Positions 8,343-36,314 of a DNA stretch of 36,662 bases are shown piece after piece (within the stretch, counting starts at the first letter, position 1; every line of letters begins with the position of its first letter). Origin of the DNA: a bacterium (GTDB lineage: Bacteria > ARS69). Location of the stretch: positions 1 through 36,662 of the forward strand of contig JALGZR010000026.1 of NCBI GenBank assembly GCA_025774805.1, read 5' to 3'. The translations under genes were made by a program, and so were the position numbers. A model generated the notes under the pieces. It saw only the letters and a program-made list of their open reading frames with translations, was not told where the DNA came from and did not search any database.

Positions 8343-9854
8343 GTGTTGCCGAGATTCCACCTCCCCGAGGCCCGCGCCGGCCGTCGCTCCACCCGGGGAC
8401 GAGGCCGGCCGCTTCTCGCGCTCGTCCTCGCCGGCGTCTCCGGGTGCGGGGGGCCGGGGTCGGGGGATTCCGTACCCGGGGAGGAGTCGACCCCCGGCGC
8501 GGGACGATCTTCTCGCGTAATCCATGAAACCGGTTTCATTCATACCCTAGAAGAGCGCACATTCCAATACTTCCTCGACACGACCCATCCCGAAACCGGA
8601 CTCGCCCCCGATCGGGCTCCCACGGAATCTTTCGCCAGCGTCGCCGCCACCGGGTTCGCGCTGAACGCGTGGCCAATCGGCGCGGAGCGGGGTTGGATCT
8701 CCCGGGAAGAGGCCCGGGACCGCGTCCTCCGAACCCTGCAATTCCTCTGGCGGGCACCCCAGGACTCGTCGGATGTCCGGGCCACGGGCACCCACGGTTT
8801 CTTCTATCACTTCCTGGAGCCGGGGACCGGTCACCGATTCGGCACGGTCGAGCTCTCGACCGTCGACACGGCGCTGCTGCTCGCCGGGGCGTTCTTCTGC
8901 CAATCCTGGTTCGTCGGCGACGATCCCGATGAGATCCGGATCCGTGCGCTCGCCGACTCCCTCTACCGCCGGGTCGACTGGAGATGGGCCTCCGTGCGCC
9001 CGCCGACGATCGGCCATGGCTGGACCCCGGAGCGCGGGCATCTTCCCTACGACTGGCGAGGCTACAACGAGGCGATGCTCGTCTACCTGTTCGCGCTGGC
9101 GTCTCCGACCCACGCCGTCGACGCCTCCGCCTGGCAGGCGTGGACCGCCGGGTACCGCTGGGGAGAGTTCGAGGGGCGGGAGCAGCTCGGCTTCGCGCCG
9201 CTGTTCGGGCATCAGTTCACCCACGTCTGGGTCGACTTTCGGGGGATCCGGGATGCGTTCATGCGGAAGAGAGGCTCCGACTACTTCGAGAACTCTCGGC
9301 GCGCGGTGCTCTCTCAGCGCGACTACGCCCGCGAGAATCCCGGGGAGTGGGTCGGTTACGGGGACGACCTCTGGGGACTGACCGCGTGCGACGGACCGGT
9401 GCACGGGGAGTTCGAAATCGACGGACGCATCCGCGAGTTTCGGACGTACTGGGCGCGCGGCGCCTCGTTCACGGAAATCTCCGACGACGGAACGATCTGT
9501 CCGTCCGCAGCCGCCGCGTCCATCGCGTTCGCCCCGGAGATCGTGGTGCCGACGCTCACCGCGATCGTCGAACGGTACGGCGAGAACGTGTACGGAGAGT
9601 GGGGGTTCCTTGACGCGCTGAATCCGACGTTCACGCTCGACGTCCCCGTTCAGCACGGCCGCGTCGATTCCGCACTCGGCTGGTTCGACACCGACTGCCT
9701 CGGGATCGACCAGGGGCCGATTCTCGCGATGATCGAGAACCACCGCTCACGGCTCGTCTGGCGCACGATGCGGAGCAACGAACACGTCGTGCGCGGCCTT
9801 CGGGCGGCCGGGTTCGCAGGGGGGTGGCTCGACTCGATTCCGGAGTCGCTTTGA
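8343..9854 (+). CDS. GH144-like (Pfam 'Glycoamylase') lipoprotein, probable beta-1,2-glucanase
   Basis: This 503-residue lipoprotein has a signal with lipobox LAGVSGC and lipid Cys35. An (alpha/alpha)6 domain of the Pfam 'Glycoamylase' family follows. The family includes GH144 endo-beta-1,2-glucanases and domains of cyclic beta-1,2-glucan synthases. Visible signatures are RTFQYFLDTTHPETGLAPDR, VELSTVDTALLLAG (E170), GYNEAM, LFGHQFTHVWVDFR (289-300), YFENSRRAVLSQRDYA, and GIDQGPILAMIEN. It would cut beta-1,2-glucan in the periplasm or at the membrane. The start is uncertain: GTG 8343 or TTG 8346 fit the signal, while 8244 would run into the divergent gene. Unlike its two relatives downstream it has no C-terminal sorting domain. 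It heads an operon with the sugar ABC transporter. An exo- or transglycosylating activity cannot be excluded. Confidence 0.8.
   Translation: MLPRFHLPEARAGRRSTRGRGRPLLALVLAGVSGCGGPGSGDSVPGEESTPGAGRSSRVIHETGFIHTLEERTFQYFLDTTHPETGLAPDRAPTESFASVAATGFALNAWPIGAERGWISREEARDRVLRTLQFLWRAPQDSSDVRATGTHGFFYHFLEPGTGHRFGTVELSTVDTALLLAGAFFCQSWFVGDDPDEIRIRALADSLYRRVDWRWASVRPPTIGHGWTPERGHLPYDWRGYNEAMLVYLFALASPTHAVDASAWQAWTAGYRWGEFEGREQLGFAPLFGHQFTHVWVDFRGIRDAFMRKRGSDYFENSRRAVLSQRDYARENPGEWVGYGDDLWGLTACDGPVHGEFEIDGRIREFRTYWARGASFTEISDDGTICPSAAAASIAFAPEIVVPTLTAIVERYGENVYGEWGFLDALNPTFTLDVPVQHGRVDSALGWFDTDCLGIDQGPILAMIENHRSRLVWRTMRSNEHVVRGLRAAGFAGGWLDSIPESL
8524..8539. promoter_or_regulatory. 16-bp perfect palindrome resembling a LacI-family operator
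   Basis: ATGAAACCGGTTTCAT is a perfect 16-bp palindrome with the AACCGGTT core typical of LacI-family operators. It lies inside the GH144 lipoprotein gene, about 180 bases after its start, at codons for HETGF. It may be an intragenic roadblock operator for the LacI protein encoded at 21843, or a chance product of codons. The two promoter-proximal sites near 21.6-21.7 kb share its AACCG-TT core. Confidence 0.3.
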
Positions 9855-11152
9855 GATCCCCGCGCGGGCCGATCGCGTTCCCGGCGGTCGCCCTCGTCGT
9901 TGCGCTTGCCGTGTCCGGTTGCGGATCACGCGGTGACGACGAGGCCGTGACCGTGAGGTTCTGGGCGATGGGGCGCGAAGGTGAGGTCGTGCGGGAGCTC
10001 GTCCCCGACTTCGAGCGGGAGAATCCCGGTCTTCGCGTGGATGTCCAGCAAATCCCCTGGTCGGCGGCCCACGAGAAGCTCCTCACGGCCCACGTCGGTC
10101 GCGCGACTCCCGACGTCGCGCAGCTCGGAAACACGTGGATCGCCGAGTTCGTCGCGTTGAACGCCATCCGGCCGCTCGAGCCGCTGGTCGCGGACCCCGC
10201 CACGTTCTTCCCCGGCATCTGGGAGACGAACGTGGTCGAGGGCGTCACGTGGGGCGTACCCTGGTACGTCGACACGCGCGTGCTGTTCTACCGGAGCGAT
10301 CTCTTCCGGCGGGCCGGTCATGAGGTGTTCCCGACGACATGGGACGCGTGGCGGCGCGCGCTCGAGGACGTCCGCGCGGTCCTCGGCGAGCGGGACTACC
10401 CGGCGTTCCTGCCCGCGAACGAGTGGCCGCTTCCCGTCATCCTCGGGCTTCAGGCCGGCTCGCCGCTGCTTGCGGAGGGAGACACGCGCGGCGCGTTCTC
10501 CGAACCCGCCTTCCGGCGAGCGTTCGACTTCGCGCTCGACCTGTACCGGAGGTGTCTCGCGCCCGCGATCGGCAACGCCGAGATCGGGAATCTCTACCAG
10601 GAGTTCGGACGGGGGCACATCGCCTCGCTCTTGACGGGACCGTGGAACCTCGGCGAGCTGGCGCGACGCCTGCCTGATTCACTCGCGGGCGCGTGGTCGA
10701 CCGCGCCCGTGCCGGGCCCGGAGGGCCCCGCGTCGGGAGTCTCCTTGGCGGGAGGCGCAAGCCTCGTGGTCTTCCGCGGGGCGCGGCACCCCGAGGCGGC
10801 CTGGCGGTTCATCACGTACCTCTCGCGGCCCGACGTCCAGTTGCGCTTCTATCGTCTGACCGGCGATCTGCCCGCCCGCGTCGAGCCGTGGGAGGAGCGG
10901 GAGCTCGCCCGCGATTCCCGCATCGCCGCGTTCCGCGAGCAGCTCGGGCGCGTCGTTTCCACCCCGAAGATCCCCGAATGGGAGCAGATCGCCTTCCGGG
11001 TGCAGAGCCGAGCCGAGGAGGCGATCCGGGGGGAGGCGACGGCCGAGGAGGCGCTCGCCCGCCTCGATGCCGACGTCGATCGGTTGCTGGAGAAGCGCCG
11101 TTGGTTGCTCCGGCGCCGGGCTGCGGAATCGGCCGAGGAAGGCACCTCGTGA
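9851..11152 (+). CDS. Sugar ABC transporter substrate-binding lipoprotein
   Basis: This 433-residue protein is of the MalE/UgpB type (SBP_bac_1). It has a lipoprotein signal with the lipobox LAVSGC, then VTVRFWAMGREGEVVRELVPDFERENP, PDVAQLGNTWIAEFVALNAI, GVPWYVDTRVLFYRSDLF, LLTGPWNLGEL, and GGASLVVFRGARHPEAAWRFI. These are the strands and hinge of an oligosaccharide-binding protein. I prefer TTG 9851, which overlaps the upstream stop (TTGA) and has GGAG 5 bases before it. GTG 9824 in frame is the alternative. From context its ligand is probably a beta-1,2-linked glucooligosaccharide, as for the sophoro-oligosaccharide-binding protein of Listeria; sequence alone does not show this. It is followed with overlap by two permease genes. 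Confidence 0.88.
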   Translation: MRSPRGPIAFPAVALVVALAVSGCGSRGDDEAVTVRFWAMGREGEVVRELVPDFERENPGLRVDVQQIPWSAAHEKLLTAHVGRATPDVAQLGNTWIAEFVALNAIRPLEPLVADPATFFPGIWETNVVEGVTWGVPWYVDTRVLFYRSDLFRRAGHEVFPTTWDAWRRALEDVRAVLGERDYPAFLPANEWPLPVILGLQAGSPLLAEGDTRGAFSEPAFRRAFDFALDLYRRCLAPAIGNAEIGNLYQEFGRGHIASLLTGPWNLGELARRLPDSLAGAWSTAPVPGPEGPASGVSLAGGASLVVFRGARHPEAAWRFITYLSRPDVQLRFYRLTGDLPARVEPWEERELARDSRIAAFREQLGRVVSTPKIPEWEQIAFRVQSRAEEAIRGEATAEEALARLDADVDRLLEKRRWLLRRRAAESAEEGTS

Positions 11153-12039
11153 TCGACACGCTCGAGCGCAGGCGCCGGCGCGCGGGGTGGACGTTCGTGG
11201 CCCCGGCGCTGCTGTTGATGGCGGTCTTCTTCGTCGGGCCGGTGACGTCCGGACTGCTTCTCAGTCTCACGGACTTCGATGTGTATGCGATCGGGTCCCC
11301 GTCCACCGCGCGATTCGTCGGGTTGAAGAACTACGCGACGGCGCTCGTCGATCCCGGATTCTGGCGCGCCGTCCAGAACACCCTGTTCTTCGTCGTCGTC
11401 GGTGGACCGCTAACGGTGGTCGTGTCGCTCGCCGCCGCGCTTCTCCTGAACGCCCGCGCGGTCCGCTTCCGCGGCTTCTTCCGCACCGTCTACTTCGCAC
11501 CGGTCGTCACGACGCTCGTGGCGGTCGCGGTCGTCTGGCGCTACCTCTATCACCCGCACTACGGGCTCCTGAATTACGCGCTCGGTTGGATTGGCGTCCC
11601 CCCGATCGACTGGCTCGGCGATCCCCTTTGGGCGATGCCGGCGATCGTGCTCCTCGCCGTGTGGAAGAACTTCGGCTACGCCATGCTCATCTTCCTCGCC
11701 GGGCTGCAGACGATCGAGGAAAGCCTGTACGAAGCCGCCTCCGTCGACGGCGCCGGTTCCTGGCGCCGGTTCCTGCACGTGACCCTGCCCGGGCTCGGCC
11801 CCACGTTCCTGTTCGTGACCGTCACGACGATGATCGGGCACTTCCAGCTCTTCGCGGAGCCGTACGTCATGACGCAGGGCGGCCCCGTGGGAGCCACGCG
11901 CAGTCTCGTCCTGCTCATGTACGAGGAGGGCTTTCGATGGTGGCGGATCGGGGAGGCTTCGACGATTGCGGTGCTGCTCCTCGGGATCACGCTGATCGGG
12001 GCGATCGTGCAGATGCGTTTCGCGGGGCAGCGGAGATGA
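11149..12039 (+). CDS. Sugar ABC transporter permease, MalF/UgpA type
   Basis: This 296-residue inner-membrane permease has six helices. The conserved cytoplasmic EAA loop reads EAASVDGAGSWRRFLHVTLP, the docking site for the ATPase. Other family marks are FVGLKNYATALVDPGFWRAV near residues 60-80 and TQGGPVGATRSL near the end. GTG 11149 overlaps the binding-protein stop (GTGA) and has GAGGAAGG 7 bases upstream. Its stop overlaps the next permease. With the second permease it would form the channel for the oligosaccharide held by the binding protein. No ATP-hydrolysing subunit is encoded in the window. Confidence 0.92.
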   Translation: MIDTLERRRRRAGWTFVAPALLLMAVFFVGPVTSGLLLSLTDFDVYAIGSPSTARFVGLKNYATALVDPGFWRAVQNTLFFVVVGGPLTVVVSLAAALLLNARAVRFRGFFRTVYFAPVVTTLVAVAVVWRYLYHPHYGLLNYALGWIGVPPIDWLGDPLWAMPAIVLLAVWKNFGYAMLIFLAGLQTIEESLYEAASVDGAGSWRRFLHVTLPGLGPTFLFVTVTTMIGHFQLFAEPYVMTQGGPVGATRSLVLLMYEEGFRWWRIGEASTIAVLLLGITLIGAIVQMRFAGQRR

Positions 12040-15800: not shown

Positions 15801-16195
15801 AAGCGGCGTTCCTCGGCGATCTCCCGCACGGCTGGGTCGCGTCGGACTGGATCCGGTCGATCCTCGATCTGTTCGCGTACCGGTCGACCGACGGCTCGAA
15901 GCTCGTGCTCGCCGCCGGGATTCCCGCGGACTGGCTCGTGCCGGGAGAGCCGGTGCGCGTGCACGGTCTGCGGACGGCCTGGGGATCGCTCGACTACACA
16001 CTCGAGACCGACGGGGAAACGGTGGAGCTCCGGATTGCAGGGACGCTTCGCGTGCCTCCCGGCGGCATCGTCGTCGATCCGCCGCTCCCGGTCGAGATGC
16101 GCACGGTGACGATCGCAGGGATCAAGCGGGGGCTCGATGCCCGGGTGCCGGTCATCGTGCGACGGGTGCCGGCGGAGGTTTGCTTCGCGCCCTGA
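12899..16195 (+). CDS. Large lipoprotein with CBM-like, F5/8-type and (alpha/alpha)6 glycosidase-like domains
   Basis: This 1,098-residue protein starts at ATG 12899 with GGAGGA just before it. It has a lipobox LAMVAGC near residue 30. Domains I can see are: residues about 44-205, a CBM11/CIA30-like sandwich (IDDFEAESEW...WIDDLTIRTL); about 214-345, a discoidin/F5-8C-type domain (AIDGDLDTCWRP, VEISDDRETWRVV); about 350-610, a second beta-sandwich; about 614-985, an (alpha/alpha)6 toroid with RSWIRDGALTSIALLRMGH, SYWDDFFAFRGFEDAVFLARELG and DWIPGCADLGDFDPTSTTIALSP; then a C-terminal beta domain. This is the six-hairpin glycosidase superfamily, and I cannot assign a CAZy family. It lies at the end of the GH144/ABC operon, so a role in trimming beta-glucan oligomers or side groups in the periplasm is likely but unproven. 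Confidence 0.75.
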   Translation: MMTRRGAGLPRRRSVRHAAGTLAAAIATLAMVAGCAGPRVGGERGPGGGAVRMIDDFEAESEWTTHPADGVQMRLSDGPGWEGSALRFDFSFTGGGYAIARRELDLELPENWAIDFRLRGRGGPNHLELKLIDETGENVWWSVRRDLELPEEWTRLTTKKRHVEFAWGPAGGGEIRRISAIELAVTAGSGGTGTVWIDDLTIRTLAVVVGPPPEPIAFASSPADTGEEAVAGRAIDGDLDTCWRPMATDRRPWLALDLGTSREFGGLVVDWRDGEAWSEYTVEISDDRETWRVVRRVRGGNGGRDPHFLPETESHYVRIAAPPGEGTEAVGPPRGAVAELSLRPLAWSANREAFFAALAADAPRGTYPRGMLGEQSYWTLVGTDGGVSEGLLDEDGRLEPGPGSFSIEPFLHVDGELATWSDALGTTSLAEGSLPIPSVARRFGDLELRVEAFAVGPSESPTIVARYRVANLGPESRAATLFLALRPFQVNPPSQTLNLRGGTARIRRIEGGPVVARVEPGGSVRCLRPAAVFGAVAFDGGELVNDFLRHGEVPPASGVEDPFEAASAAWSHPLEIASGDTAEVAIVVSTPPGADPLDAPSLGLPVPGEGESPSREWVERKLEAVRDEWRATLDRVVLQGPAAATRVLETLRAQLAWILVNRSGPAIRPGSRSYRRSWIRDGALTSIALLRMGHGDAAREFLDWYAPHQYPNGKVPCVVDDRGADPVPEHDSSGELIHLIAEIYRFEGDRDRLRSLWPRVASAADWLDTLRRQRLGEEWRTEERRPFFGILPPSISHEGYSAKPMHSYWDDFFAFRGFEDAVFLARELGHEEEAKRHDGIRREFRRDLAASVAAATDRHGIDWIPGCADLGDFDPTSTTIALSPTGAAEILPREMLERTFERYWEFFRERRDGAPWTAFTPYEVRSIGAFVRLGRRDRALALIEFFLDHRRPAGWRQWPEVVRSDLREAAFLGDLPHGWVASDWIRSILDLFAYRSTDGSKLVLAAGIPADWLVPGEPVRVHGLRTAWGSLDYTLETDGETVELRIAGTLRVPPGGIVVDPPLPVEMRTVTIAGIKRGLDARVPVIVRRVPAEVCFAP

Positions 16196-16245: not shown

Positions 16246-17637
16246 TCACGGATCGCCCCGCGGCGCCGCGTCGAGAACGGCGCCTCGTGTCCGGACGACG
16301 TCCCGGTAGAAGAGGGCGCTCTCTTTGAGGGTTCGCCGCTGCGTGGCGTAGTCCACGTGGACAATGCCGAACCGTTTCGACGTGCCGTGCGTCCACTCGA
16401 AGTTGTCGAGCAGTGACCAGACGAAGTACCCACGGAGATCGACTCCGCGCCGCCGCGCCTCCCGCGCGGCCCGTAGATGATCGCGGAGATACACGACGCG
16501 ACGTGGATCGGGAAGAGGTTCGACGTCCACGGCGGGCGGGTCGGGAAAGGCGGCGCCGTTCTCCGTCACGTAGATCGGGACGTCGCCGTAACGATCCCGT
16601 ACGTCGGTCAGCGCTCGCGTGAAGCTCGGGGCATGGATCTCCCATCCCAGATCCGTCACCGATCCCGGAGGTTCGACGGAGCACGCCCGCGTGGGGAACT
16701 TGTCGTCGGCGTGCGTGGTGACTCCGCGCGAGTAGTAGTTGACGCCGAGGAAATCGATCGGCTCGGCGATCGCCGTCCAGTCGGCATCCGGGAAGCGGGG
16801 CCAGTATTCCCCGTACATGTCGGCCAGCCCGTCCGCCGGACGCCCGAAGAAGACCGGATCGAGGGCCAATCGGTTCATGGCGATATCGGCACGTCGTGCC
16901 GCGTCGAGATCCTCGGTGGACCGGGACGCGGGGTCCTTCGGCTCGAGGTTGACGACGAGACCGATCTGCCCGCGGGCCTCCGCCCGGAAGACGCGGACCG
17001 TGTCGGCGTGCGCGCGGAGCAGACGAAATGCCACGGTCGCGGACTCTCGAGGATCGCGGTGGCCGGGCGGATGCGTCCCCTGGCCGTGCCCCGCTTCGAC
17101 GATGACCCACGGCTCGTTCAGGGTGATCCACGATCGGACACGGTCCCCGAGCGCACGGAACGCGACGGCGGCGTAGTCCGCGAACCAAGATGCCGAATCG
17201 GGGTGGATCCATCCCCCACGATCCTGGAGCGCCGCCGGAAGATCCCAGTGGTAGAGCGTGATCCAGGGTTCGATGCCCTTCGCCAGGAGAGCGTCGACGA
17301 GCCGATCGTAGAAACCGATCCCGGGCGCGTTCGGGCGGCCCCGACCCTCCGGCAGGATCCGGCCCCACGCGAGGCTGAACCGGTAGGCGCCGAGCTCCAG
17401 CCGTTCGAGAAGCGCCACGTCCTCCGGGAATCTCCGATAGTGGTCGCACGCGATGTCGGCCGTCTCGCCGTCGTGGATGCGCCCCGGGATCCGCTCGAAG
17501 TGGTGCCAGATGCTCGGGCCCGCCCCGTCGGCCAGAGGTGATCCCTCGATCTGATGGGCGGACGTGGCCGCGCCCCAGACGAAGTCCTCCGGGAAGAGCT
17601 CCGGCGAGGGGGCCTCGGGCGCACGCGTCCCGCTCAC
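16246..17637 (-). CDS. GH1 beta-glucosidase, cytoplasmic
   Basis: This 463-residue protein is a typical full-length GH1 TIM barrel without a signal peptide. The N-terminal FPEDFVWGAATSAHQIEG is the family start. E175 in TLNEPWV is the acid/base and E359 in YVTENGAA is the nucleophile. The sugar-binding WSLLDNFEWTHGTSKRFGIVHVDY is present near the end. It hydrolyses terminal beta-glucosyl residues. Beside the GH94 phosphorylase its natural substrate may be sophorose or short beta-1,2-glucooligosaccharides (inference). GTG 17637 overlaps the GH94 stop (GTGA). It is the last gene of a two-gene operon and converges with the lipoprotein gene 50 bases away. Confidence 0.93.
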   Translation of the reverse strand: MSGTRAPEAPSPELFPEDFVWGAATSAHQIEGSPLADGAGPSIWHHFERIPGRIHDGETADIACDHYRRFPEDVALLERLELGAYRFSLAWGRILPEGRGRPNAPGIGFYDRLVDALLAKGIEPWITLYHWDLPAALQDRGGWIHPDSASWFADYAAVAFRALGDRVRSWITLNEPWVIVEAGHGQGTHPPGHRDPRESATVAFRLLRAHADTVRVFRAEARGQIGLVVNLEPKDPASRSTEDLDAARRADIAMNRLALDPVFFGRPADGLADMYGEYWPRFPDADWTAIAEPIDFLGVNYYSRGVTTHADDKFPTRACSVEPPGSVTDLGWEIHAPSFTRALTDVRDRYGDVPIYVTENGAAFPDPPAVDVEPLPDPRRVVYLRDHLRAAREARRRGVDLRGYFVWSLLDNFEWTHGTSKRFGIVHVDYATQRRTLKESALFYRDVVRTRGAVLDAAPRGDP

Positions 17638-21618: not shown

Positions 21619-21654
21619 TGGAACCGTTTACGCACCTTTCCCCGGCCATGCCAA
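21619..21654 (-). promoter_or_regulatory. Operator and candidate promoter of the GH94-GH1 operon
   Basis: On the minus strand TTGGCA (21654-21649) stands 18 bases before TAAACG (21630-21625), a weak -10. The latter lies inside the LacI-type operator TGGAACCGTTTACG (21619-21632 on the plus strand). An operator over the -10 box fits repression when inducer is absent. The leader to GTG 21530 would be about 90 bases. Confidence 0.4.
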
Positions 21655-21842: not shown

Positions 21843-22943
21843 GTGGCAACCATCCGAGACGTGGCGCGGGCCGCCGGGGTCTCCATCGCGACGGTGTCCC
21901 GCGTGTTCAACGGGAGCTCGCGGGTGAGCCAGCGCGCGGAGGACCGGGTCTGGGAAGCCGCGCGCGAGCTCGACTACTGGCCCCACGGCGGAGCCCGCAG
22001 CCTCACCACGAACCGTACCGATGCGCTCGGCGTCCTCCTTCCCGATATTCACGGCGAGTTCTTCTCCGAGGTGATTCGGGGGATCGATCAGGCCGCGCGT
22101 CGTGACGGCTTCCATGTCCTCATCTCCAGCTCGCATGCCGATGCCGACGGCGTGGTCGTCGCATCCCGCGCGATGCACGGTCGCGTCGACGGGATGATCT
22201 TGATGTGCTCCGACGAGGCGTCGGCGGAGGCGAGCGTCCAGGTCTCGCGCCAGTTTCCGCTCGTTCTCCTGAATCCCCGCTCCTCGCCCAACGGTTGCAG
22301 CTCGATCTCGATCGCGAACTACGAAGGCGCGTACGGTGTCGTGTCGCATCTCATCCGACTCGGTCACCGGGAAGTCGCGATCTTGTGCGGTCCGAACGGC
22401 AACGGCGATTCCGACGAGCGGGTGCGGGGCTACCTGCGCGCGCTGGCCGACGCGGGCATCGAGCCGCACCCCGGACTCAGCGTATCGGGAGACTTCACCG
22501 AGTCGTCCGGCTATCGCTCAGCATCGCTCCTTCTGCGGCACGATCCGCGTCCCACCGCGGTCTTTGCCGCAAACGACTCGATGGCGATCGGACTCCTCTC
22601 GGCTCTCGGCAACGCGGGCGTCGAAGTGCCGCGGGACATGGCGGTTGCCGGCTTCGACGACATTACCATCGCGCGCTACCTCCGCCCCCCCTTGACCACG
22701 GCCCACGTCGATGCGTTCGAGCTCGGCGAGCGCGCCGTCCGCCTCTTGGTCACCAGTATCCGCATGCCCGATTCGGGTGTCGTCAGCCACGAGACGCTCC
22801 CGGTGACGTTCGTCGTCCGGCAATCCTGCGGATCACCGCTTCCCCCGCGGGAGACGATGCTCGGGATCGACTCCCCCGGTCGAGGTTCCGTCCGACCGGG
22901 GGGCGCTGCGGCAATCCCCACCAGAAGGAGACGTCAGCAATGA
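21843..22943 (+). CDS. LacI-family transcriptional regulator
   Basis: This 366-residue regulator begins with the LacI helix-turn-helix (TIRDVARAAGVSIATVSRVF) and the hinge (ARSLTTNRT). A periplasmic-binding-type effector domain follows (ALGVLLPDIHGEFFSEVIRGI, FAANDSMAIGLLSAL, VAGFDDITIARYLRPPLTT). The effector is probably a sugar made from the substrate of this locus. It very likely controls the divergent GH94-GH1 operon and its own operon through the two operators at 21619 and 21728. GTG 21843 gives the canonical MATIRDVA start. The ribosome site AAGGAGGT ends only 2 bases before it, unusually close, so translation may be modest. It carries a C-terminal Arg-rich tail of about 40 residues not usual in the family. 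The next gene overlaps its stop (ATGA). Confidence 0.93.
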   Translation: MATIRDVARAAGVSIATVSRVFNGSSRVSQRAEDRVWEAARELDYWPHGGARSLTTNRTDALGVLLPDIHGEFFSEVIRGIDQAARRDGFHVLISSSHADADGVVVASRAMHGRVDGMILMCSDEASAEASVQVSRQFPLVLLNPRSSPNGCSSISIANYEGAYGVVSHLIRLGHREVAILCGPNGNGDSDERVRGYLRALADAGIEPHPGLSVSGDFTESSGYRSASLLLRHDPRPTAVFAANDSMAIGLLSALGNAGVEVPRDMAVAGFDDITIARYLRPPLTTAHVDAFELGERAVRLLVTSIRMPDSGVVSHETLPVTFVVRQSCGSPLPPRETMLGIDSPGRGSVRPGGAAAIPTRRRRQQ

Positions 22944-27596: not shown

Positions 27597-30500
27597 ATGG
27601 AGCATCGACAGGGAGCCGGGAACGTCGGATCGGGACGGCGGGAGCACGCGGTCGCCGGATCGTGGCTCGCGGTCGCACTCGGCGTCGCACTGTCGGTCGG
27701 CCCTTCGGGACCCGGACGGGCCGACGTGATCACGCCGGTTCCAAAGGACGAGCGCGGGACGCTCGACGCCGAGCGTTCGGGGTTCCACGACGCGAACAAC
27801 ATGCGCACCGTCTTCTGGAACTACGGAATGGTCGGCGACTATCCATCCGATCCCGGCAACGTCGATCTCAGTATCTTCCACTCCGTGGAGGTTCCGAGGG
27901 GCAGCGGGATGAACTACAGCGACGGGGTCACGCCGTTCGTCCTCGCCGAGATCACCCTGGCGGACGGCTCGACCGCCCACATCATGGAGACCGGATTCCG
28001 CGAACGGCAGGGCGTCAGTCCGTTCTTCGACCGCGTCATGCGTTTCGAGCCCCGGCCGGGGTACTTCCAGCCCGACCCGGGAATCAACGCGGGTCGGTCT
28101 CCCGCGCTCAGCAACGATCCCCGGACGTGGCCCGCGTCCTGGCCCGATCGTCTCGACGATCCGGACGATCCGGGGTGGCCGGCATCCTGGAACGGGTACT
28201 TCGGGAAGGCGATCGTCGCGGATCAGGAGAGCTACATGGTTCTCGACGATGACTTCTACGATGCATGGGACTTTCGTCCCGATTCCCGCGACACGACGCG
28301 CCGGGGGCTGGGGCTCCGAATCGAGGTGCGCGGCTTCCAGTGGGCGAACCCCCAGGCGCGCAATGTCATCTTCTGGCATTACGATATCACGAACGAGGGC
28401 ACCACCGACTACGACGACAACATCATATTCGGCCTGTACATGGACTCGGGGGTCGGGGGATCGGCCCTGTCGTGCGACGGGATCTTCGAGTCGGATGACG
28501 ACAACGCATTCTTCAATCGCTCGTTCGACGAGAACGTCATCAATCTCGTGTACACGTGGGATCGCTTCGGCCACGGGCGCGATCTCTCCGGACCGTGCGG
28601 GACGACCGGCTATCTCGGGTATGCGTACCTCGAGACGCCCGGCAACTCCTTCGACGCGGTCGACAACGACGAGGACGGGATCACGGACGAGTTACGGGAT
28701 GGCGGACCGGGGCAGCACGTCGTGGGGCTGACGGAGATTGACGCCTACCTCGGCGCGAACTACGACGTCCCGCGGTTCGAGGCCACGTACGGGCCCCTCG
28801 CCGATCGGCCGGCCTACCGGAACGAATCCTGGTGGACGGGGGACGAGGACATGGACTGGGTCCCCGAGCTCCACGACACCGGTGCCGACGGGGTCTTCGA
28901 GACGGGAGACACGGGGGAAAACGACGGCGCGCCCACCGAGGGCGAGCCGAACTTCGACGGTACGGACCTGAACGAGTCGGATCAGATCGGGCTCACGGGA
29001 TTCAAGATCAACCGGATCCGGCCGGGTCAGGGCAATCCCGACCAAGAGACCGATGCCATCGTCTTCTTCACGAACAACGACGAGTGGCCCCGGCGCCTCT
29101 ACGAGCAGTTCTCGGACCCCGACTCCTCGGTCCGGTTCGGGGAGCCGATCGCATCGAACTACAACATCGGATTCCTCTTCGCATCCGGCCCGTTCCGGCT
29201 GGAAGCCGGGCAGACCGAGCGCTTCAGCCTGGCCCTCGCCTTCGGGGCGGATCTCAGCGAGCTGCGGCGAACGGTCCAGACCGTCCAGCAGATCTACGAC
29301 TCGAACTACCGGTTCGCGACGCCGCCGAAGCCTCCCACCGTCACGGCCGAGACGGGAGACGGTTTCGTACGTCTCTCCTGGAACGACGTCGCCGAGCGGA
29401 GCGCCGATCCGGTCACGGGAGAGTTCGATTTCGAGGGATATCGCATCTACCGATCGACCGATCCCACGTTCCTCGACCCGCAGGTGATCACGACGGGAAC
29501 CGGATCGGGACCCATCGGCAACGGGCGGCCGATCGCCCAGTTCGATCTCATCAACGGGCGGCAGGGGTTCTCTGAGCAAACGGTCGAAGGAGTCTCCTAC
29601 TACCTGGGCACCGACAGCGGAATCACCCACACCTGGACCGACTACGGCGTAACGAACGGTCAGCGCTATTACTACGGGGTCACCGCGTACGATCGGGGAA
29701 CGGAAACCGTTTCGGGGGCCCCCGCCTTCTATCCTTCCGAGAACTCCGTCAGCGTCTCGGTCACTCCCCGCGGCGGTACGATTCTGCCGACGAACGTGGT
29801 CGAGGTGCGGCCGAATCCGAAGGTGGCGGGATGGCTGCCGGCCGAGGCCGGCGAGGTAAACCAGACGGCGGGGCGGGGTGTCGGAACCGTCGCCGTCGCC
29901 GTCGTGAACTCCGGGCTCATCCCCGACGGCCACGTGTTCGAGATCACGTTCGCCTCCCCCTCCCCCGACAGCTTCCGGGCGTGGACCTACGCCCTGATCG
30001 ACAGCACGGCCGGGACCGTGCTCTTCGAGACGGGCAACGACCTCGACGGCGCCGGGATCGGGACGACCGGCGGGGGCCTTCTTCCGATCGTCGCGACGGC
30101 GTCCGAGGTGACGATCGACTCGTCCTCGACGGGGATGACTCCGGGATCAACCACGGACGGGCGCTTTCTGTTCACGTACCAGACCGCCCTGCCCATCAAT
30201 CAGCGGCGGCCGGGCTACCCCGATGACGTCTCGATCGTCTTCGCGGATGCCGTCGTCGACACGGGACTGGACATGTTCCCGATCCCCCCGAACCCCGCGA
30301 AGTTCAAGGCCTACGCCCATGCCGACACCGGGGACGTCCCGCTCGACTTCCGATTCCGGGATATCGACGGGGACGGGACACTTACCCGGGGTGACGAGTT
30401 CATCGATCTCGTGACGTACGCCCGGACCGATCCCGTGACGCCGCACGTCACCTGGCGCCTCCAGCTCGACACGGCGGCGGGGCCCGACTCACTCTTGGAC

Positions 30501-30926
30501 TCTCCCGGGGCGGGTGACGTCTACCAGGCGGCCCTCGTCCGACCTCTCTCGCGCGAAGACCGCTTCCGGTTCGTGACGAGCGGGGAGTCGATCGACTCCG
30601 ATGCGGCGCGGCGCGGCTTCACCCCCTACGTCGTGCCGAATCCGTACGTGGCATCCGCGAGCTTCGAGCCGGAGCGGTTCAACATCTCGGGCCGCGGGGA
30701 ACGCCGTCTCGAGTTCCGGGGACTGCCGGCCGCTAGCGTGGTGAGGATCTATACGGTGCGAGGGGAGCTCGTCGAGACCTTGCACCACGACGGCGGGGCC
30801 GAGGGTTGGGTCGAGTGGAACATCCGGACACGGGAGAATCTCGACGTCGCCCCCGGGCTCTATGTCTTCCATGTCGATGCCGGTGCGCTCGGCTCGAAGA
30901 CCGGCAAGTTCGCGATCATCAAGTGA
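27597..30926 (+). CDS. Large secreted surface protein with FN3 domain and sorting domain
   Basis: This 1,109-residue protein begins 3 bases after the receptor stop, with GGAGGT 10 bases before its ATG. It has a signal peptide (AVAGSWLAVALGVALSVGPSGPGRA). An N-terminal half of about 570 residues is of no family I can name. It is rich in Asp, Asn and Trp (SESDDDNAFFNRSF-like, DAVDNDEDGITDEL with EF-hand-like Asp runs that may bind calcium). A fibronectin type III domain spans about 575-723 (FVRLSWNDVAE, FEGYRIYRSTDPTF, YYYGVTAYD). The C-terminal sorting domain (about 1014-1109: PNPYVASASFEP, RLEFRGLPAASVVRIYTVRGELVETL, GLYVFHVDAG) is T9SS-like. Its place after the receptor suggests it takes the role of a surface lipoprotein partner such as SusD. 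This is inference only. Confidence 0.8.
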   Translation: MEHRQGAGNVGSGRREHAVAGSWLAVALGVALSVGPSGPGRADVITPVPKDERGTLDAERSGFHDANNMRTVFWNYGMVGDYPSDPGNVDLSIFHSVEVPRGSGMNYSDGVTPFVLAEITLADGSTAHIMETGFRERQGVSPFFDRVMRFEPRPGYFQPDPGINAGRSPALSNDPRTWPASWPDRLDDPDDPGWPASWNGYFGKAIVADQESYMVLDDDFYDAWDFRPDSRDTTRRGLGLRIEVRGFQWANPQARNVIFWHYDITNEGTTDYDDNIIFGLYMDSGVGGSALSCDGIFESDDDNAFFNRSFDENVINLVYTWDRFGHGRDLSGPCGTTGYLGYAYLETPGNSFDAVDNDEDGITDELRDGGPGQHVVGLTEIDAYLGANYDVPRFEATYGPLADRPAYRNESWWTGDEDMDWVPELHDTGADGVFETGDTGENDGAPTEGEPNFDGTDLNESDQIGLTGFKINRIRPGQGNPDQETDAIVFFTNNDEWPRRLYEQFSDPDSSVRFGEPIASNYNIGFLFASGPFRLEAGQTERFSLALAFGADLSELRRTVQTVQQIYDSNYRFATPPKPPTVTAETGDGFVRLSWNDVAERSADPVTGEFDFEGYRIYRSTDPTFLDPQVITTGTGSGPIGNGRPIAQFDLINGRQGFSEQTVEGVSYYLGTDSGITHTWTDYGVTNGQRYYYGVTAYDRGTETVSGAPAFYPSENSVSVSVTPRGGTILPTNVVEVRPNPKVAGWLPAEAGEVNQTAGRGVGTVAVAVVNSGLIPDGHVFEITFASPSPDSFRAWTYALIDSTAGTVLFETGNDLDGAGIGTTGGGLLPIVATASEVTIDSSSTGMTPGSTTDGRFLFTYQTALPINQRRPGYPDDVSIVFADAVVDTGLDMFPIPPNPAKFKAYAHADTGDVPLDFRFRDIDGDGTLTRGDEFIDLVTYARTDPVTPHVTWRLQLDTAAGPDSLLDSPGAGDVYQAALVRPLSREDRFRFVTSGESIDSDAARRGFTPYVVPNPYVASASFEPERFNISGRGERRLEFRGLPAASVVRIYTVRGELVETLHHDGGAEGWVEWNIRTRENLDVAPGLYVFHVDAGALGSKTGKFAIIK

Positions 30927-30940: not shown

Positions 30941-31960
30941 ATGCGACGGCTCATCTTCCTGGCGATTCTCCTGACGGTGGCAGGGCCCCTCGCGACGCGC
31001 CCGGCGGCCGGCCAGAGCAAAGTCGGAACGACGGTCGCGCAGTTTTTGGGGATCGAGCCGAGCGCGCGCAATGCGGGTATGGGAAACGCCGGCGTCGCGT
31101 TACCGGAAGGGATCGAAGCCGTCTACTTCAACGTCGGGGCGATCGGGACCATCGATCGACCGACGGTCCAGTTGACCCACAGCGAGTGGTTCGCGGGGAT
31201 CGATTTCGACTACGCGGCGGGGGCCCTGCCCATCGGTCGATGGGGGACCCTCTTCGCGAGCCTCACCGCGTTGAACTCGGGGGATATCCTGGTGCGAACC
31301 GTAACCCAGCCCGAGGGCACGGGTGAGAGGTACACCGTCGGCGACGTCGCCCTGGGCCTCGGATACGGGCGGCGGATCACCCGGCGGTTCTCGGCCGGCA
31401 TCCGGGCGAACTGGGTGCACCAGAGAATCTGGCACACGACCCTGAACGCGGGCACGATCGACCTGGGCACGGTCTACCGGTTCCGGGAGAACGGTCTCAC
31501 GATCGGGTCGAGCCTCTCGAACGTCGGGACGCGCAGCCGGTTCACCGGGCGGGATCTCGCGATCCAGTACGACGCGGACGCCGACACCTTCGGCGGCAAC
31601 AGCACGCTGCCGGCGGAGCAGTTCACGAACCAGTATCCGATGCCCCTGCTATTCCGGGTGGGAATCAGTTATCCTCTACGGATCAGGGGCGATGCCGAGA
31701 TGCTATTTCTGCTCGATGCGCTCCACCCGAATGACAACTCGGAGAGCATCGATGTGGGCCTGGAGTGCAGCCTGCGGCGCCGGCTCTGTCTGCGCGCCGG
31801 CTATCAGAATCTCTTTCAGGACGAATCGGAGGTCGGCTGGACCCTGGGCGTCGGATTGAGGGGCGGCGTCGCGGAGAGGAGCTTCCAGGTCGACTACGGA
31901 TGGGGGAGCCATGACCACCTGGACGAGACCCATCGCCTGACGCTCGTCTTGGAGCTTTGA
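30941..31960 (+). CDS. PorV/PorQ-family outer-membrane beta-barrel protein
   Basis: This 339-residue protein starts at ATG 30941 with an AGAAGAGAG ribosome site. A signal peptide (MRRLIFLAILLTVAGPLATRPAAG) precedes the PorV-type opening: FLGIEPSARNAGMGNAGVALPEGIEAVYFNVGAI. Alternating beta-strands follow (GLSYPLRIRG-like, VGLECSLRRRLCLRAGYQ, FQVDYGWGSHDHLDETHRLTLVLEL). PorV of the type IX secretion system picks up cargo carrying C-terminal sorting domains and hands it to the PorU sortase. PorQ-like relatives have less clear jobs. Here it sits between surface proteins that carry such sorting domains, so a cargo-handling role is likely. No other T9SS gene is in the window. Confidence 0.8.
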   Translation: MRRLIFLAILLTVAGPLATRPAAGQSKVGTTVAQFLGIEPSARNAGMGNAGVALPEGIEAVYFNVGAIGTIDRPTVQLTHSEWFAGIDFDYAAGALPIGRWGTLFASLTALNSGDILVRTVTQPEGTGERYTVGDVALGLGYGRRITRRFSAGIRANWVHQRIWHTTLNAGTIDLGTVYRFRENGLTIGSSLSNVGTRSRFTGRDLAIQYDADADTFGGNSTLPAEQFTNQYPMPLLFRVGISYPLRIRGDAEMLFLLDALHPNDNSESIDVGLECSLRRRLCLRAGYQNLFQDESEVGWTLGVGLRGGVAERSFQVDYGWGSHDHLDETHRLTLVLEL

Positions 31961-31987: not shown

Positions 31988-33652
31988 ATGAAGAAGGCAC
32001 ATCGATTTCGAGCGATCGGCACGCGCGCGGCGCTTCTCGGGGTCGCCATCTCCCTCCTCGGAGGGGCGCCGGTCGCCTCGGCGGGGGACGACGGGGGACT
32101 CGCCCCCGGGCTGCCGCCGCCGATCGAACGCACCACGCTGACGACGGCAGCGCTGCTCGACACGCTGCAGCACACGGCCTTCGACTTCTTCTGGGAACAG
32201 GCGAATCCGTCGAATGGACTGATCCGGGACCGCTGGCCGACGCCCTCGCCCTGCAGCATTGCCTCCGTGGGATTCGGGCTCTCGGCCATCTGCATCGGCA
32301 TCGATCACGGGTGGATCACCCGGGAGGAGGGGCGGGACCGAGTCCTGACGACTCTCGACACGTTCTGGACGTATCCCCAAGGCCCCGAAGCCTCCGGAAA
32401 GATCGGCTACCAAGGACTGTTCTATCACTTTCTCGACATGAACACCGGCGAGCGGGTCTGGAACTGTGAGCTCTCGACGATCGATACGGCCCTGCTGTTC
32501 GCCGGGATCATCGACGCGCGCGAGTACTTCGACGGGGGCGACCCCGAGGACGTCCAGGTGCGCGCGCTGGCCGACTCGATCACCCACCGCGCCGACTGGG
32601 ACTTCATGCGCAACGGAGGCGCCGGGATCCGGATGGGGTGGAAGCCGGGGACCGGGTTTGCGGGATTCGGCGAGTGGGTCGGTTACAACGAGGCGATGAT
32701 CCTCTATCTCCTGGCGATCGGGTCCCCCACGCACCCGGTGCCGGCCGCGACGTGGATCATCTGGACGAGCGGGTATAGCTGGCAGACCCAGTACGGCTAC
32801 CAGTACGTCATCTTCCCCCCGCTCTTCGGTCACCAGTACTCGCACTGCTGGATCGACTTCCGGAGCATCCAGGACTCCTACATGCAGACCAAGGGGATCA
32901 CGTACTTCGAGAACTCGCGCCGGGCGACGCTCGCCCAGCGGGAGTACTGCATCGCGAATCCGGGCGGGTGGACGGGCTACGGGCCGAACGTCTGGGGGAT
33001 CACGGCCTCGGACACGCCGACCGGCTACATGGCCCGGGGGGCCCCGCCGCCGCAGAACGACGAGGGCACGATCACGCCGACCGCGGTCGCGGGATCGATC
33101 CCGTTCGCTCCCGGGGTGACGATTCCGACCCTCCATCACTGGTATGATACGTACCGACCGCAGATCTTCTCCGTCTACGGGTTCGTCGATGCCTTCAACC
33201 TGACGGTGAACTGGTGGGATCTCGACTACATCGGGATCGACCAGGGGCCCATCGTGATCATGATCGAGAACTACCGGACGGGTAAAGTCTGGGAGCGGTT
33301 CATGGGGAACGCGGACGTTCAAGCCGGGCTGCTGGGAGCCGGGTTCGCGCCAGCGACGGACGTGCCTTGGGCGTCGGAGGAGCGTGGGAAGCGACTCGTC
33401 TTGCGGCAGAATGCGCCGAATCCCATCCAGCGATCCGCCCAGATCGCCTACCACGTGCCGACGGCAGGACCGGTGTCGCTGGTTCTGTACGACGTGGCGG
33501 GCCGGAGGGTGCGAACGCTCGTGGACGAGCGACAGTCGGCGGGGGAGCATGTCGCGATGCTGCGCGGAGAGGGCCTCCCGAGCGGCACGTACTTCTACCG
33601 GCTCGAAGCGAACGGCGAGCGTGAAGGGAAGCAGTGCGTGATCATCAGGTGA
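31988..33652 (+). CDS. GH144-like (Pfam 'Glycoamylase') secreted enzyme with sorting domain, probable beta-1,2-glucanase
   Basis: This 554-residue protein has a signal peptide (TRAALLGVAISLLGGAPVASA), then the (alpha/alpha)6 domain (about 50-440) seen in GH144. It contains TAFDFFWEQANPSNGLIRDR, CELSTIDTALLFAG (E161), GYNEAM, FGHQYSHCWIDFRSIQ (281-296), YFENSRRATLAQREYCI, GYGPNVWGITASD and YIGIDQGPIVIMIEN. The C-terminal FlgD-like tail (about 466-554: RLVLRQNAPNPIQRSAQIAYHVP, LVLYDVAGRRVRTLV, PSGTYFYRLEA) is a surface-sorting domain. It would cut beta-1,2-glucan outside the cell, ahead of the TonB receptor. It shares long blocks with the lipoprotein at 8343 and still more with the broken copy at 34704, which suggests duplication. 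The family also includes cyclic-glucan-synthase domains, so specificity needs testing. Confidence 0.85.
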   Translation: MKKAHRFRAIGTRAALLGVAISLLGGAPVASAGDDGGLAPGLPPPIERTTLTTAALLDTLQHTAFDFFWEQANPSNGLIRDRWPTPSPCSIASVGFGLSAICIGIDHGWITREEGRDRVLTTLDTFWTYPQGPEASGKIGYQGLFYHFLDMNTGERVWNCELSTIDTALLFAGIIDAREYFDGGDPEDVQVRALADSITHRADWDFMRNGGAGIRMGWKPGTGFAGFGEWVGYNEAMILYLLAIGSPTHPVPAATWIIWTSGYSWQTQYGYQYVIFPPLFGHQYSHCWIDFRSIQDSYMQTKGITYFENSRRATLAQREYCIANPGGWTGYGPNVWGITASDTPTGYMARGAPPPQNDEGTITPTAVAGSIPFAPGVTIPTLHHWYDTYRPQIFSVYGFVDAFNLTVNWWDLDYIGIDQGPIVIMIENYRTGKVWERFMGNADVQAGLLGAGFAPATDVPWASEERGKRLVLRQNAPNPIQRSAQIAYHVPTAGPVSLVLYDVAGRRVRTLVDERQSAGEHVAMLRGEGLPSGTYFYRLEANGEREGKQCVIIR

Positions 33653-33751: not shown

Positions 33752-34567
33752 ATGCGAAACACCTTCAACGAAAAGGTCGTCGGGACAGCGGCGCTCGTGG
33801 CCGTTGCGATGATGCTCGTGTCGAGCCCCGTTGCGGCGACACCGCTCATCAACAGCGCCGTCATCCAGACGCGCATCTTCGACGACTGCCCGACGTCGAT
33901 CCTCACGACGACCAACAGCTATCCCGGGATGATTTCGATCTTCGACGATGTCCTGGACTGCGGCGGGTTCGCGAACCTGCACATCTGGAGGCTTTCGGAC
34001 GACGGGATCACGCCCGCCTTGTTCGCCAACGCGTCGGCGTTCAAGTTTTCCGCGAACCTGACGATCGCGGGGACGGCCGAGGGTGAAGCCGGGCTTCAGA
34101 TTGCTCCGTGGTGGTCGCAACAGGTCGACGGGCGGTTCAACGTCCGGACGACGGACGGCGAGATCGCGTGCTTCGGAGGTCGGCTGCCGTTCTACTCTTT
34201 CACGGCCACGGACGGCGTCACGTACGTGAAGGGAACGGCGATTCGTCTCACGGTGGAGTACCTGCCGAACGATCTAAATGAGGCGAACCCGGCAACGATC
34301 GAGTACCGGATTCTCTACAACAACACGAAGTACTCGAGCGGGCCGATCCCGTTCGACATGGGGAATCCGGACGAGGATCCGCCCTACGGACTCTGGGGGA
34401 TGCTCAACGACGCTCAGGTCGGCGCGCACTTCCAGGTGTTCCTGCAGGCCGGGAATCCCGATGCGGGCTTGGAAGCCGTCTGGAACGAGATCAAGTTCAT
34501 CAGTCTGAAGGGGCCCATCGCGACGGAGTCGGAGTCGTGGGGCCAGATCAAGGCGCTCTATCACTAG
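33752..34567 (+). CDS. Secreted protein of unknown function between two GH144-like genes
   Basis: I do not recognise this 271-residue protein. It has a clear signal peptide (KVVGTAALVAVAMMLVSSPVAA). The rest alternates short hydrophobic strands (LHIWRLSDDG, FKFSANLTIAG, GEAGLQIAPWWSQQVDGRFNV, IRLTVEYLP, HFQVFLQAG) with Asn/Asp loops, ending in EAVWNEIKFIS. This pattern suggests an all-beta sandwich, perhaps lectin- or concanavalin-like (inference). It has three cysteines. There is no sorting domain, in contrast to its neighbours, so it may stay periplasmic or be released. AAGGAGAT lies 9 bases before ATG 33752. A strong hairpin about 60 bases after the gene probably ends the transcript. Its position between two copies of one enzyme suggests a glucan-binding helper, but that is a guess. 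Confidence 0.75.
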   Translation: MRNTFNEKVVGTAALVAVAMMLVSSPVAATPLINSAVIQTRIFDDCPTSILTTTNSYPGMISIFDDVLDCGGFANLHIWRLSDDGITPALFANASAFKFSANLTIAGTAEGEAGLQIAPWWSQQVDGRFNVRTTDGEIACFGGRLPFYSFTATDGVTYVKGTAIRLTVEYLPNDLNEANPATIEYRILYNNTKYSSGPIPFDMGNPDEDPPYGLWGMLNDAQVGAHFQVFLQAGNPDAGLEAVWNEIKFISLKGPIATESESWGQIKALYH

Positions 34568-34623: not shown

Positions 34624-34657
34624 ACGAGCCCCGCGGGTCCAGACCTGCGGGGCTCGT
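34624..34657. terminator. Strong terminator-like hairpin after the unknown secreted protein
   Basis: ACGAGCCCCGCGGGT and ACCTGCGGGGCTCGT pair as a 15-bp stem with one G-U pair and the loop CCAG. TTCG follows, so the U-run is weak, and the symmetric stem could act in both directions. It lies 57 bases after the stop of the unknown gene and 46 bases before the best start of the third GH144-like gene. That gene therefore may lie outside the main operon. Confidence 0.6.
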
Positions 34658-34703
34658 TTCGATGTTCCTGACGATGTCGCTTCCTCCATCCCGGATCGCT
34701 TTC

Positions 34704-36314
34704 ATGACTGCGAATCGCCGCGCATTGACGGCCGGCACGAAGATCCTCGCGTGGCTCGTTCTCCTGGCGGTGGGGAGCCCCGCGTGTCCCGCCGGGGCGG
34801 ACTCGCTGAGCACGGAGGAGCTCCTGGACGAGCTCCAGCACCGGGCCTTTCTCTATTTCTGGAACGAGGCGAATCCCGCGAACGGGCTGGTAAAGGATCG
34901 GAGCACGACGTGGGCTCCGGGCAAGATGGCGGCCACGGGGTTCGGGATGTCCGCGATCTGCATCGGGATCGACCACGGTTGGGTGACCCGCGAGGCGGGC
35001 CGGGACCGAATCCTCACTGCACTGCAGACGCTCTGAACCGGGTCGCAAGGGCCTGAGCCGGAGGGGAACATCGGGTACCAGGGCTTCTTCTACCACTTCA
35101 TCGATCTGGACACCGCCGAGAGGACGTGGCAGAGCGATCTGTCGCCCATCGACACGGCGATTCTCTTCGCGGGAATGATCGACGCCCGGGAGTACTTCTC
35201 GGGGAGCGATTCGCTGGACGTGACCCTACGGAGCCACGCCGACTCGATCCTGCACCGGACCGACTGGACCTTCATGTACAACGGACTGGGCATCCCCCTG
35301 GCCTGGACGCCGGAGGGTGGTTTCCACGAGACGACCTGGCTGGGCTACAACGAAGCGATGATCATGTACCTCCTGGCCATCGGCTCTCCGACCCATCCGA
35401 TTCCCTCGTTCTCCTGGTTCACCTGGACGGCCGGGTACGACTGGTCGACTCACTACGGCCACACGTTTGTGACGTTCCCGCCGCTTTTCGGACACCAGTA
35501 CACGCACTGCTGGATCGACTTCCGCTTCATCCAGGACGTCTACATGCAGTCCAAGGGAATTACGTACTTCGAGAACTCGCGGCGGGCCACCCTCGCCCAA
35601 CGCGAGTACTGCATCGACAATCCCGGCGGATTCATGGGGTACGGACCGAACGTCTGGGGGCTCACGGCCAGCGATGATCCGTTCGTCGGTTACCTTGCAC
35701 ACGGTGCGCCCCCGGCTCAGAACGACAACGGGACGCTCACGCCGACCGCCGCCGCAAGCTCGATCCCCTTCGCCCCCGACGTCGTCATTCCCGTTTTACA
35801 CGAGCTGTACGAGACCTACGGCGCTCAACTCTGGTCGACCTACGGCTTCAAGGACGCCTTCAATCCCACTCAGGGTTGGTTCGGCCCGGACTACATCGGA
35901 ATCGACCAGGGCCCGATCATCCTCATGATCGAGAACCACCGGACGGGTTCGATCTGGAACCGGGTCATGCAGAATGCAGACGTGCAGCGAGGACTCAGCC
36001 TCGCAGGATTCGAAGCCGCGACAGGAGTCGACATCCTATCGGGCGAGTCCTCCCGATCGGTTCTGTTTCAGAACGCACCGAATCCGATTCGGAGATCATC
36101 CACGATCCGTTACGAATTGGCCGAGAGCGGACCGATCAGGCTGGATCTCGTTGACGTTTCGGGACGAATCGTGCGCCATCTCGTGGAAGGCGTGAAAGAC
36201 GCGGGCGGGCACGAGATCGCTCTGAGTGCGGAGGGGCTGCCCGCCGGGGTGTACTTCTACCGGCTGGAGACTGTCGATTCGGTGACGAGTCGCAAGATGC
36301 TCGTGCTCAGGTGA
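34704..36314 (+). pseudogene. Third GH144-like gene, interrupted by an in-frame TGA
   Basis: The two halves lie in one frame and are separated only by TGA at 35034-35036 (codon 111). The position is Trp (TGG) in the copy at 31988 (LDTFW against LQTL-stop), so one base change explains it. Without the stop it would be a 536-residue secreted enzyme. It has a signal (KILAWLVLLAVGSPACPA), AFLYFWNEANPANGLVKDR, GYNEAM, FGHQYTHCWIDFRFIQ, YFENSRRATLAQREYCI, YIGIDQGPIILMIEN and a C-terminal sorting domain (FQNAPNPIRRSSTIRYELAES). The acidic residue of the ELST(I/V)DT motif is Asp145 here instead of Glu. ATG 34704 gives the best signal; 34662 and 34674 are in-frame alternatives. A sequencing error could also explain the stop. 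A downstream re-start at ATG 35175 would lack the first third of the fold. Confidence 0.8.

What the first reader, a model, noticed from the sequence alone, without database searches (positions are those of the whole stretch)
8343..36314. A probable beta-1,2-glucan utilisation locus in an FCB-type bacterium
Three GH144-like genes, a GH94 of the 1,2-beta-oligoglucan phosphorylase type, a GH1 beta-glucosidase, a sugar ABC importer, a LacI regulator, a TonB receptor and a CBM9-like surface protein lie together. The Pfam 'Glycoamylase' family is known to include GH144 endo-beta-1,2-glucanases, and the Listeria sophoro-oligosaccharide operon has the same cytoplasmic half (GH94, beta-glucosidase, binding protein, permeases, LacI). 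Adding an outer-membrane route with T9SS-like surface display gives a combined Gram-negative layout that I have not seen described. Substrate assignment is inference from family and context.
Basis: partly seen in the sequence, partly recalled or inferred. Interest (0 to 1): 0.75.

Follow-up and report, generated by a model that had tools for sequence, protein, structure and literature searches.

The report
Beta-1,2-glucan locus with unknown enzyme partner
This is a real set of genes for eating beta-1,2-glucan, a rare bacterial sugar polymer; the layout is already known and widespread, but one gene that almost always travels with it encodes a sugar-cutting-type enzyme that matches no curated family here and is worth testing.

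Summary
The finding is real and the substrate assignment is well supported. All three PF10091 proteins are GH144, closest to the proven Xanthomonas endo-beta-1,2-glucanase XcSGL, and keep its catalytic residues; the third gene is broken by an in-frame TGA. The binding protein is closest to a Xanthomonas sugar SBP and then to the sophoro-oligosaccharide binder Lin1841. [quoted passage not shown] (2) The combined Gram-negative layout is described for Ignavibacterium album (PMC8861115), and the same gene order occurs in Krumholzibacteriota, Gemmatimonadota, Acidobacteriota, Duganella and Xanthomonas. Its homologues have GH144 nearby in 41 of 46 loci with adequate flanks, and its acidic active-site candidates are invariant. 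It is a candidate new glycoside hydrolase family. Overall: new member of a known kind, with one uncharacterised, testable component.

The parts
8343..9854 (+). GH144 endo-beta-1,2-glucanase a, lipoprotein (lipobox VSGC)
   Evidence: PF10091 260 bits; catalytic residues kept
9824..11152 (+). ABC sugar-binding lipoprotein
   Evidence: Best PDB 3uor (Xanthomonas) 402 bits, then Lin1841 221 bits, next 126
11149..12039 (+). ABC permease 1
   Evidence: PF00528 61 bits
12036..12878 (+). ABC permease 2
   Evidence: PF00528 59 bits
12899..16195 (+). 'P15': lipoprotein with CBM11-like + CBM32 + beta-supersandwich + (alpha/alpha)6 barrel; candidate new GH family
   Evidence: CBM domains by profile; model pLDDT 93, pTM 0.93; fold neighbours GH15/GH65/GH94/GH116; conserved partner of GH144
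16246..17637 (-). GH1 beta-glucosidase, no signal peptide
   Evidence: PF00232 476 bits; best PDB 6jfp 537 bits
17634..21530 (-). [quoted passage not shown]
21620..21631 (+). LacI-type operator-like site GGAACCGTTTAC
   Evidence: similar palindromes upstream of lacI in L030, L037, L038, L040, L042
21729..21740 (+). LacI-type operator-like site GTAACCGTTTCC
21843..22943 (+). LacI-family regulator
   Evidence: PF00356 and PF13377
22940..24829 (+). Secreted protein with CBM9-like and C-terminal FlgD/T9SS-like domains
   Evidence: conserved position after lacI in L030, L033, L037, L040, L042
24837..27593 (+). TonB-dependent receptor with N-terminal CarboxypepD_reg domain
27597..30926 (+). 'P9': 1109 aa secreted protein of no known family, T9SS-like tail; among the best conserved proteins of the locus
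30941..31960 (+). PorV/PorQ family outer-membrane protein
   Evidence: NF033709 170 bits, cut-off 90
31988..33652 (+). GH144 endo-beta-1,2-glucanase b with T9SS-type tail
   Evidence: PF10091 277 bits; XcSGL 392 bits, CpSGL 231 bits; residues; TIGR04183
33752..34567 (+). 'P12': 271 aa secreted protein of no known family
   Evidence: 45% identical homologues beside GH144 in two Phycisphaerales loci L086, L099
34662..36314 (+). GH144 c with T9SS-type tail, interrupted by in-frame TGA at 35034-35036

Best explanation
A beta-1,2-glucan utilisation locus. Inferred pathway: surface GH144 enzymes (b, with T9SS tail) cut extracellular linear or cyclic beta-1,2-glucan into sophoro-oligosaccharides. The TonB receptor, perhaps helped by the surface proteins P9, CBM9-like and P12, brings them into the periplasm. 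Lipoprotein GH144a and the lipoprotein P15 trim them there, P15 acting on something GH144 leaves, most likely a linkage or end that the cytoplasmic enzymes cannot use. The SBP and two permeases, with an ATPase encoded elsewhere, import them. In the cytoplasm the synthase-type GH94 phosphorolyses them to glucose 1-phosphate and GH1 hydrolyses the remainder. LacI represses the divergent GH94/lacI region. Shown here: gene content, families, catalytic residues, conserved gene order. Inferred: substrate, localisation, order of steps, and the role of P15.
For: GH144 membership and residues; XcSGL and CpSGL are experimentally beta-1,2-glucanases (PMC12102758); SBP second-best PDB match is Lin1841, the sophoro-oligosaccharide binder of Listeria (PMC12369401); GH94 of the synthase type, whose reported activity is phosphorolysis of beta-1,2-glucan (PMC11842490); a GH1 acting on sophorose is known from a comparable cluster (PMC12369401); same gene order across phyla; no synthase in the genome, because all PF10091 and GH94 copies are in this window; SprA present.
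Against: No biochemistry on any of these proteins. GH94 chain-length preference and GH1 linkage specificity were not testable. GH1's best PDB match is an ordinary beta-glucosidase. One GH144 is interrupted. Localisation by signal peptide and lipobox was read by eye.
Confidence: 0.87

Rival explanations
1. P15 is a GH15-like inverting alpha-glucosidase that removes alpha-1,6 joints left when GH144 opens alpha-1,6-cyclised beta-1,2-glucans of the Xanthomonas/Ralstonia type.
For: Best VIA matches are GH15 dextran dextrinase (Z 31.4, 569 aligned, 3.7 A) and bacterial glucoamylase (Z 29.5); the WxRDG motif aligns with GH15 (hhalign E 2e-5 over 84 columns); E798 and E960 sit in the loops before inner helices 6 and 12, where GH15 has acid and base (motif reading, inference), and are invariant in 68 sequences; such glucans exist in nature (PMC11842490).
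Against: Sequence identity 13%; GH65, GH116 and GH78 score within a few Z; a shared fold does not give specificity; PF00723 finds no match in the genome.
Confidence: 0.2
2. P15 is an exo-acting or debranching enzyme on beta-linked glucans (exo-beta-1,2, or beta-1,6 side-chain removal from OPG-type glucans).
For: Association with GH144 (41 of 46 loci); the supersandwich plus barrel is shared with GH94 and GH116, which act on beta linkages.
Against: Has acidic residues at both GH15-like positions; no sequence match to any beta-acting family above cut-off.
Confidence: 0.4
3. The locus makes or remodels the cell's own periplasmic glucan rather than degrading foreign glucan.
For: The GH94 type is otherwise found as a synthase module; the Pfam family includes the synthase cyclase domain.
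Against: No synthase: all three PF10091 and the single GH94 of the genome are these stand-alone genes; importer, LacI and TonB receptor fit uptake.
Confidence: 0.05
4. The locus targets another glucan (starch, cello- or laminari-oligosaccharides).
For: Annotation pipelines call GH144 'glucoamylase'; GH1 is generic.
Against: GH144 residues and closest enzymes are beta-1,2 specific; GH94 lies outside the cellobiose and chitobiose phosphorylases; SBP matches Lin1841.
Confidence: 0.06

Closest known systems
Ignavibacterium album IaSGT gene cluster (PMC8861115)
   Different: Has a GH35 glucosyltransferase and, by its authors' discussion, no beta-glucosidase homologue in the cluster; GH94s of Ignavibacteriales loci here are short (about 800 aa), the window's is 1298 aa
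Listeria innocua lin1839-1841 cluster (PMC3960220, PMC4757417)
   Same: GH94 phosphorylase, beta-glucosidase, SBP and permeases for sophoro-oligosaccharides
   Different: GH94 there is SOGP, a type to which this GH94 is only remotely similar (LpSOGP 30 bits); beta-glucosidase is GH3; Gram-positive, no outer-membrane parts
Xanthomonas sacchari plasmid locus NZ_CP010410, genus of XcSGL
   Same: LacI, TonB receptor, GH144, SBP, permease, permease, P15 homologue in the same order
   Different: No GH1/GH94 annotated beside it; Entner-Doudoroff genes follow; no T9SS-type parts
Streptomyces griseus SGR_2422-2427 cluster (PMC12369401)
   Same: GH1 beta-glucosidase acting on sophorose beside a sophoro-oligosaccharide-type SBP and permeases
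   Different: Endoglucanase is GH193; no TonB or T9SS parts

Membership tests
GH144 | Sequence homology to characterised GH144 (XcSGL, CpSGL) | tested here: met
   392 and 231 bits for GH144b; the related-family (GH194) structure 8xuk only 30 bits
GH144 | General acid Glu (XcSGL E239/CpSGL E211), F286/F268, Y367/Y330 and acidic residue at CpSGL E142 | tested here: met
   All kept in a, b and c; E142 is Asp as in XcSGL
GH144 | Endo-hydrolysis of beta-1,2-glucan | not testable with these tools
   No assay
[quoted passage not shown]
   LpSOGP 5h3z 30 bits against 845 for the synthase and 270 for chitobiose phosphorylase; SOGP itself was not in the tree
[quoted passage not shown]
   About 40% identity over 98% to plasmid-borne synthases; UFBoot 100 with synthase modules
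[quoted passage not shown]
   1298 aa stand-alone ORF; no further PF10091 or GH94 in the genome
GH94 | Catalytic Asp (ChBP D492) and conserved R333, H644, T709 positions | tested here: met
   D967, R819, H1123, T1190; the roles of these ChBP residues are from memory
T9SS substrate | C-terminal type A sorting domain and a T9SS in the genome | tested here: met
   TIGR04183 28.4 bits (cut-off 23) on GH144b; SprA 510 bits
Sophoro-oligosaccharide GH1 (SGR_2426 type) | Q229/W291 at subsite +1 | not tested
GH15 (for P15) | Match to PF00723 above cut-off | tested here: not met
   No match in G000; no PF00723 hit for the window protein
GH78/GH65/GH94/GH116 (for P15) | Same fold with clearly best structural match | tested here: inconclusive
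   Many families within a few Z; weak PF17389, 21-23 bits for the window protein against cut-off 24.5, up to 31 bits in distant homologues

The most novel reading that the evidence does not exclude
P15 founds a new glycoside hydrolase family: a periplasmic or surface inverting enzyme that completes beta-1,2-glucan breakdown by removing what GH144 leaves (an alpha-1,6 joint, branch or chain end), and it is a near-constant part of these loci in many Gram-negative phyla.
Probability: 0.4. Interest if true: 0.65.

Novelty: new member of a known kind. Interest (0 to 1): 0.45.

Why it matters
Beta-1,2-glucans are symbiosis and virulence factors of rhizobia, Brucella and Xanthomonas, yet few degraders are known. 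The locus is not a new system, but comparison of 80 related loci shows one uncharacterised enzyme-like protein to be a near-constant partner of GH144, which makes a missing step of this pathway directly testable. It also shows that the synthase phosphorylase module has a sister clade of stand-alone enzymes linked to glucan use.

Tried and rejected
GH192 for the PF10091 proteins: rejected after reading that XCC2207 (XcSGL) is GH144. SOGP for the GH94: rejected. A frameshift in GH144c: rejected, both halves are in one frame and a single TGA separates them. UGA as Trp: rejected, TGA ends most genes here. P9 structure: model too poor to use (pLDDT 41). Strict CG-core palindrome scan of intergenic DNA found nothing; the LacI-like sites were then found by eye and tested in other loci. 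No paper mentioning P15 was found in the open-access library. Whether P15 is already numbered in CAZy could not be checked, nor the supplementary figure of PMC8861115.

Full report
OBSERVATION. The window is one whole contig (C125) of a 5.1 Mb genome assembly in 284 contigs, 96% complete, from a phylum of which only five genomes are held. Three corrections. The third GH144 gene is interrupted by an in-frame TGA at 35034-35036, at the place where GH144b has Trp, while TGA is the ordinary stop codon of the neighbouring genes. No ABC ATPase is in the locus; one MalK-type ATPase lies elsewhere in the genome, as is usual for such importers (own knowledge). A 1098-residue gene at 12899-16195, between the permeases and GH1, was not mentioned.

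GH144. The best solved relative of GH144b is XcSGL of Xanthomonas campestris (8xul, 392 bits), then 'putative glucoamylases' and CpSGL (231 bits). XcSGL and CpSGL are GH144 endo-beta-1,2-glucanases, and XcSGL has narrow specificity for beta-1,2-glucan (PMC12102758). The residues that define the clan (XcSGL E239, F286, Y367) and the acidic residue at CpSGL E142 are present in a, b and c. GH144a has a lipobox; b and c have T9SS-type tails, and the genome encodes SprA.

GH94. [quoted passage not shown] Two stretches align: residues 22-333 with the first subdomain of the synthase phosphorylase region and 422-1257 with the rest; the Rossmann-like insert described for the synthase (PMC10901819) falls between and partly within these stretches. 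tblastn against plasmids gives about 40% identity over 98% to synthase genes. A maximum-likelihood tree places the window protein in a clade of stand-alone enzymes from GH144 or P15 loci, most about 1260-1320 aa; this clade is sister to synthase modules (UFBoot 100), short (about 800 aa) GH94s of Ignavibacteria, Bacteroidota and Acidobacteria come next, and chitobiose and cellobiose phosphorylases lie outside. Catalytic D967 and the R819, H1123 and T1190 positions are kept. SOGP itself could not be put in the tree.

IMPORT AND CYTOPLASM. The SBP is closest to Xanthomonas 3uor (402 bits) and then Lin1841 (221 bits); the next hit is 126 bits. GH1 is a clear GH1; its linkage specificity is unknown, although a sophorose-active GH1 from a comparable cluster was described in 2025 (PMC12369401).

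P15. The central gene encodes a lipoprotein. Profile search finds CBM11-like and CBM32 domains and, among the 60 best matches shown, nothing for the catalytic part. AlphaFold2 with 68 homologues gives pLDDT 93 and pTM 0.93. Residues 322-1043 of the model match the supersandwich plus (alpha/alpha)6 fold: GH15 dextran dextrinase Z 31.4, bacterial glucoamylase 29.5, GH65 and GH116 about 29; Foldseek ranks cellobiose phosphorylase first. Sequence identity is 10-17% and no Pfam cut-off is reached over the catalytic part of the window protein. W678, R680, D681, E729, D731, E798, D810, D872, D874, E960, D974 and H977 are invariant in all 68. By motif, E798 and E960 sit where GH15 has its acid and base; this is inference. 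hhalign to three GH15s aligns only the WxRDG region.

CONTEXT. Within them GH144 occurs in 56, the SBP in 61, permeases in 61-62, GH1 in 38, LacI in 37 and GH94 in 29, although many contigs are short. Of 46 loci with at least 5.5 kb upstream and adequate downstream sequence, 41 contain GH144 and 36 have it within 6.5 kb upstream. L040 and L042 repeat the window's order GH144-SBP-permease-permease-P15-GH1(-)-GH94(-)-LacI-CBM9-TonB. Duganella has LacI-GH144-SBP-permease-permease-P15-GH1-GH94. X. sacchari has LacI-TonB-GH144-SBP-permease-permease-P15 homologue; its P15 reading frame appears broken in that record. The loci were chosen by similarity to P15, so they do not measure how often GH144 loci lack it; Spirosoma, for example, has GH144 beside SusC/SusD genes and no P15 among the annotated neighbours.

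SURFACE PARTS. P9 has no family match at all, is 57-75% identical across Ignavibacteriales, Kryptoniota, Krumholzibacteriota, Eisenbacteria and the sister genera, and within this phylum its long copies occur only in the genomes that also have GH94 and P15. In the Ignavibacteriales locus it is better conserved (57%) than GH94 (32%) or P15 (37%). It may be the surface partner of the TonB receptor; the structure model is unusable. P12 has relatives beside GH144 in two Phycisphaerales loci.

REGULATION. Two GKAACCGTTTMC sites lie between the divergent GH94 and lacI genes; palindromic versions (such as GTAACCGTTTAC) lie just upstream of lacI in L030, L037, L038, L040 and L042. The motif was found post hoc.

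NOVELTY. PMC8861115 already describes an Ignavibacterium album cluster with two GH144, a GH94 related to the synthase C-terminal module, a sophoro-oligosaccharide SBP and a proposed TonB step. The layout is therefore known. What is not described in the papers that could be searched is P15, and to a lesser degree P9 and P12. Verdict: new member of a known kind, containing a candidate new enzyme family.

Noticed in passing
27597-30926: P9, a 1109 aa secreted protein with no family match, is among the best conserved proteins of the locus across several phyla, and within this phylum its long copies occur only in genomes that have the locus.
   Followed up: partly
33752-34567: P12, a small secreted protein of no known family, has relatives beside GH144 in two Phycisphaerales loci; possible glucan-binding module.
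   Followed up: partly
35034-35036: In-frame TGA at a conserved Trp position in the third GH144 gene: nonsense mutation or sequencing error.
   Followed up: partly
36571-36662: Start of a group II intron (RF01999, 73.5 bits) runs off the contig end, a likely reason the assembly breaks here.
   Followed up: no
2939-8271: A TonB-ExbD-ExbD-ExbB cluster, followed by a TPR protein and a binding protein of the PBP superfamily, lies on the opposite strand just upstream and could energise the TonB receptor.
   Followed up: no
L015 and L014 (G004:C740, G003:C291): Sister genera hold a second, more distant GH94-like gene (36% identity), in G003 on the same contig as P9.
   Followed up: no
L026 7572-10445 and L027 7545-10418: Methylocystaceae plasmids carry distant P15 relatives (30-32%) with a shortened N-terminal region and without GH144 annotated nearby, so the family is wider than beta-1,2-glucan loci.
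   Followed up: no
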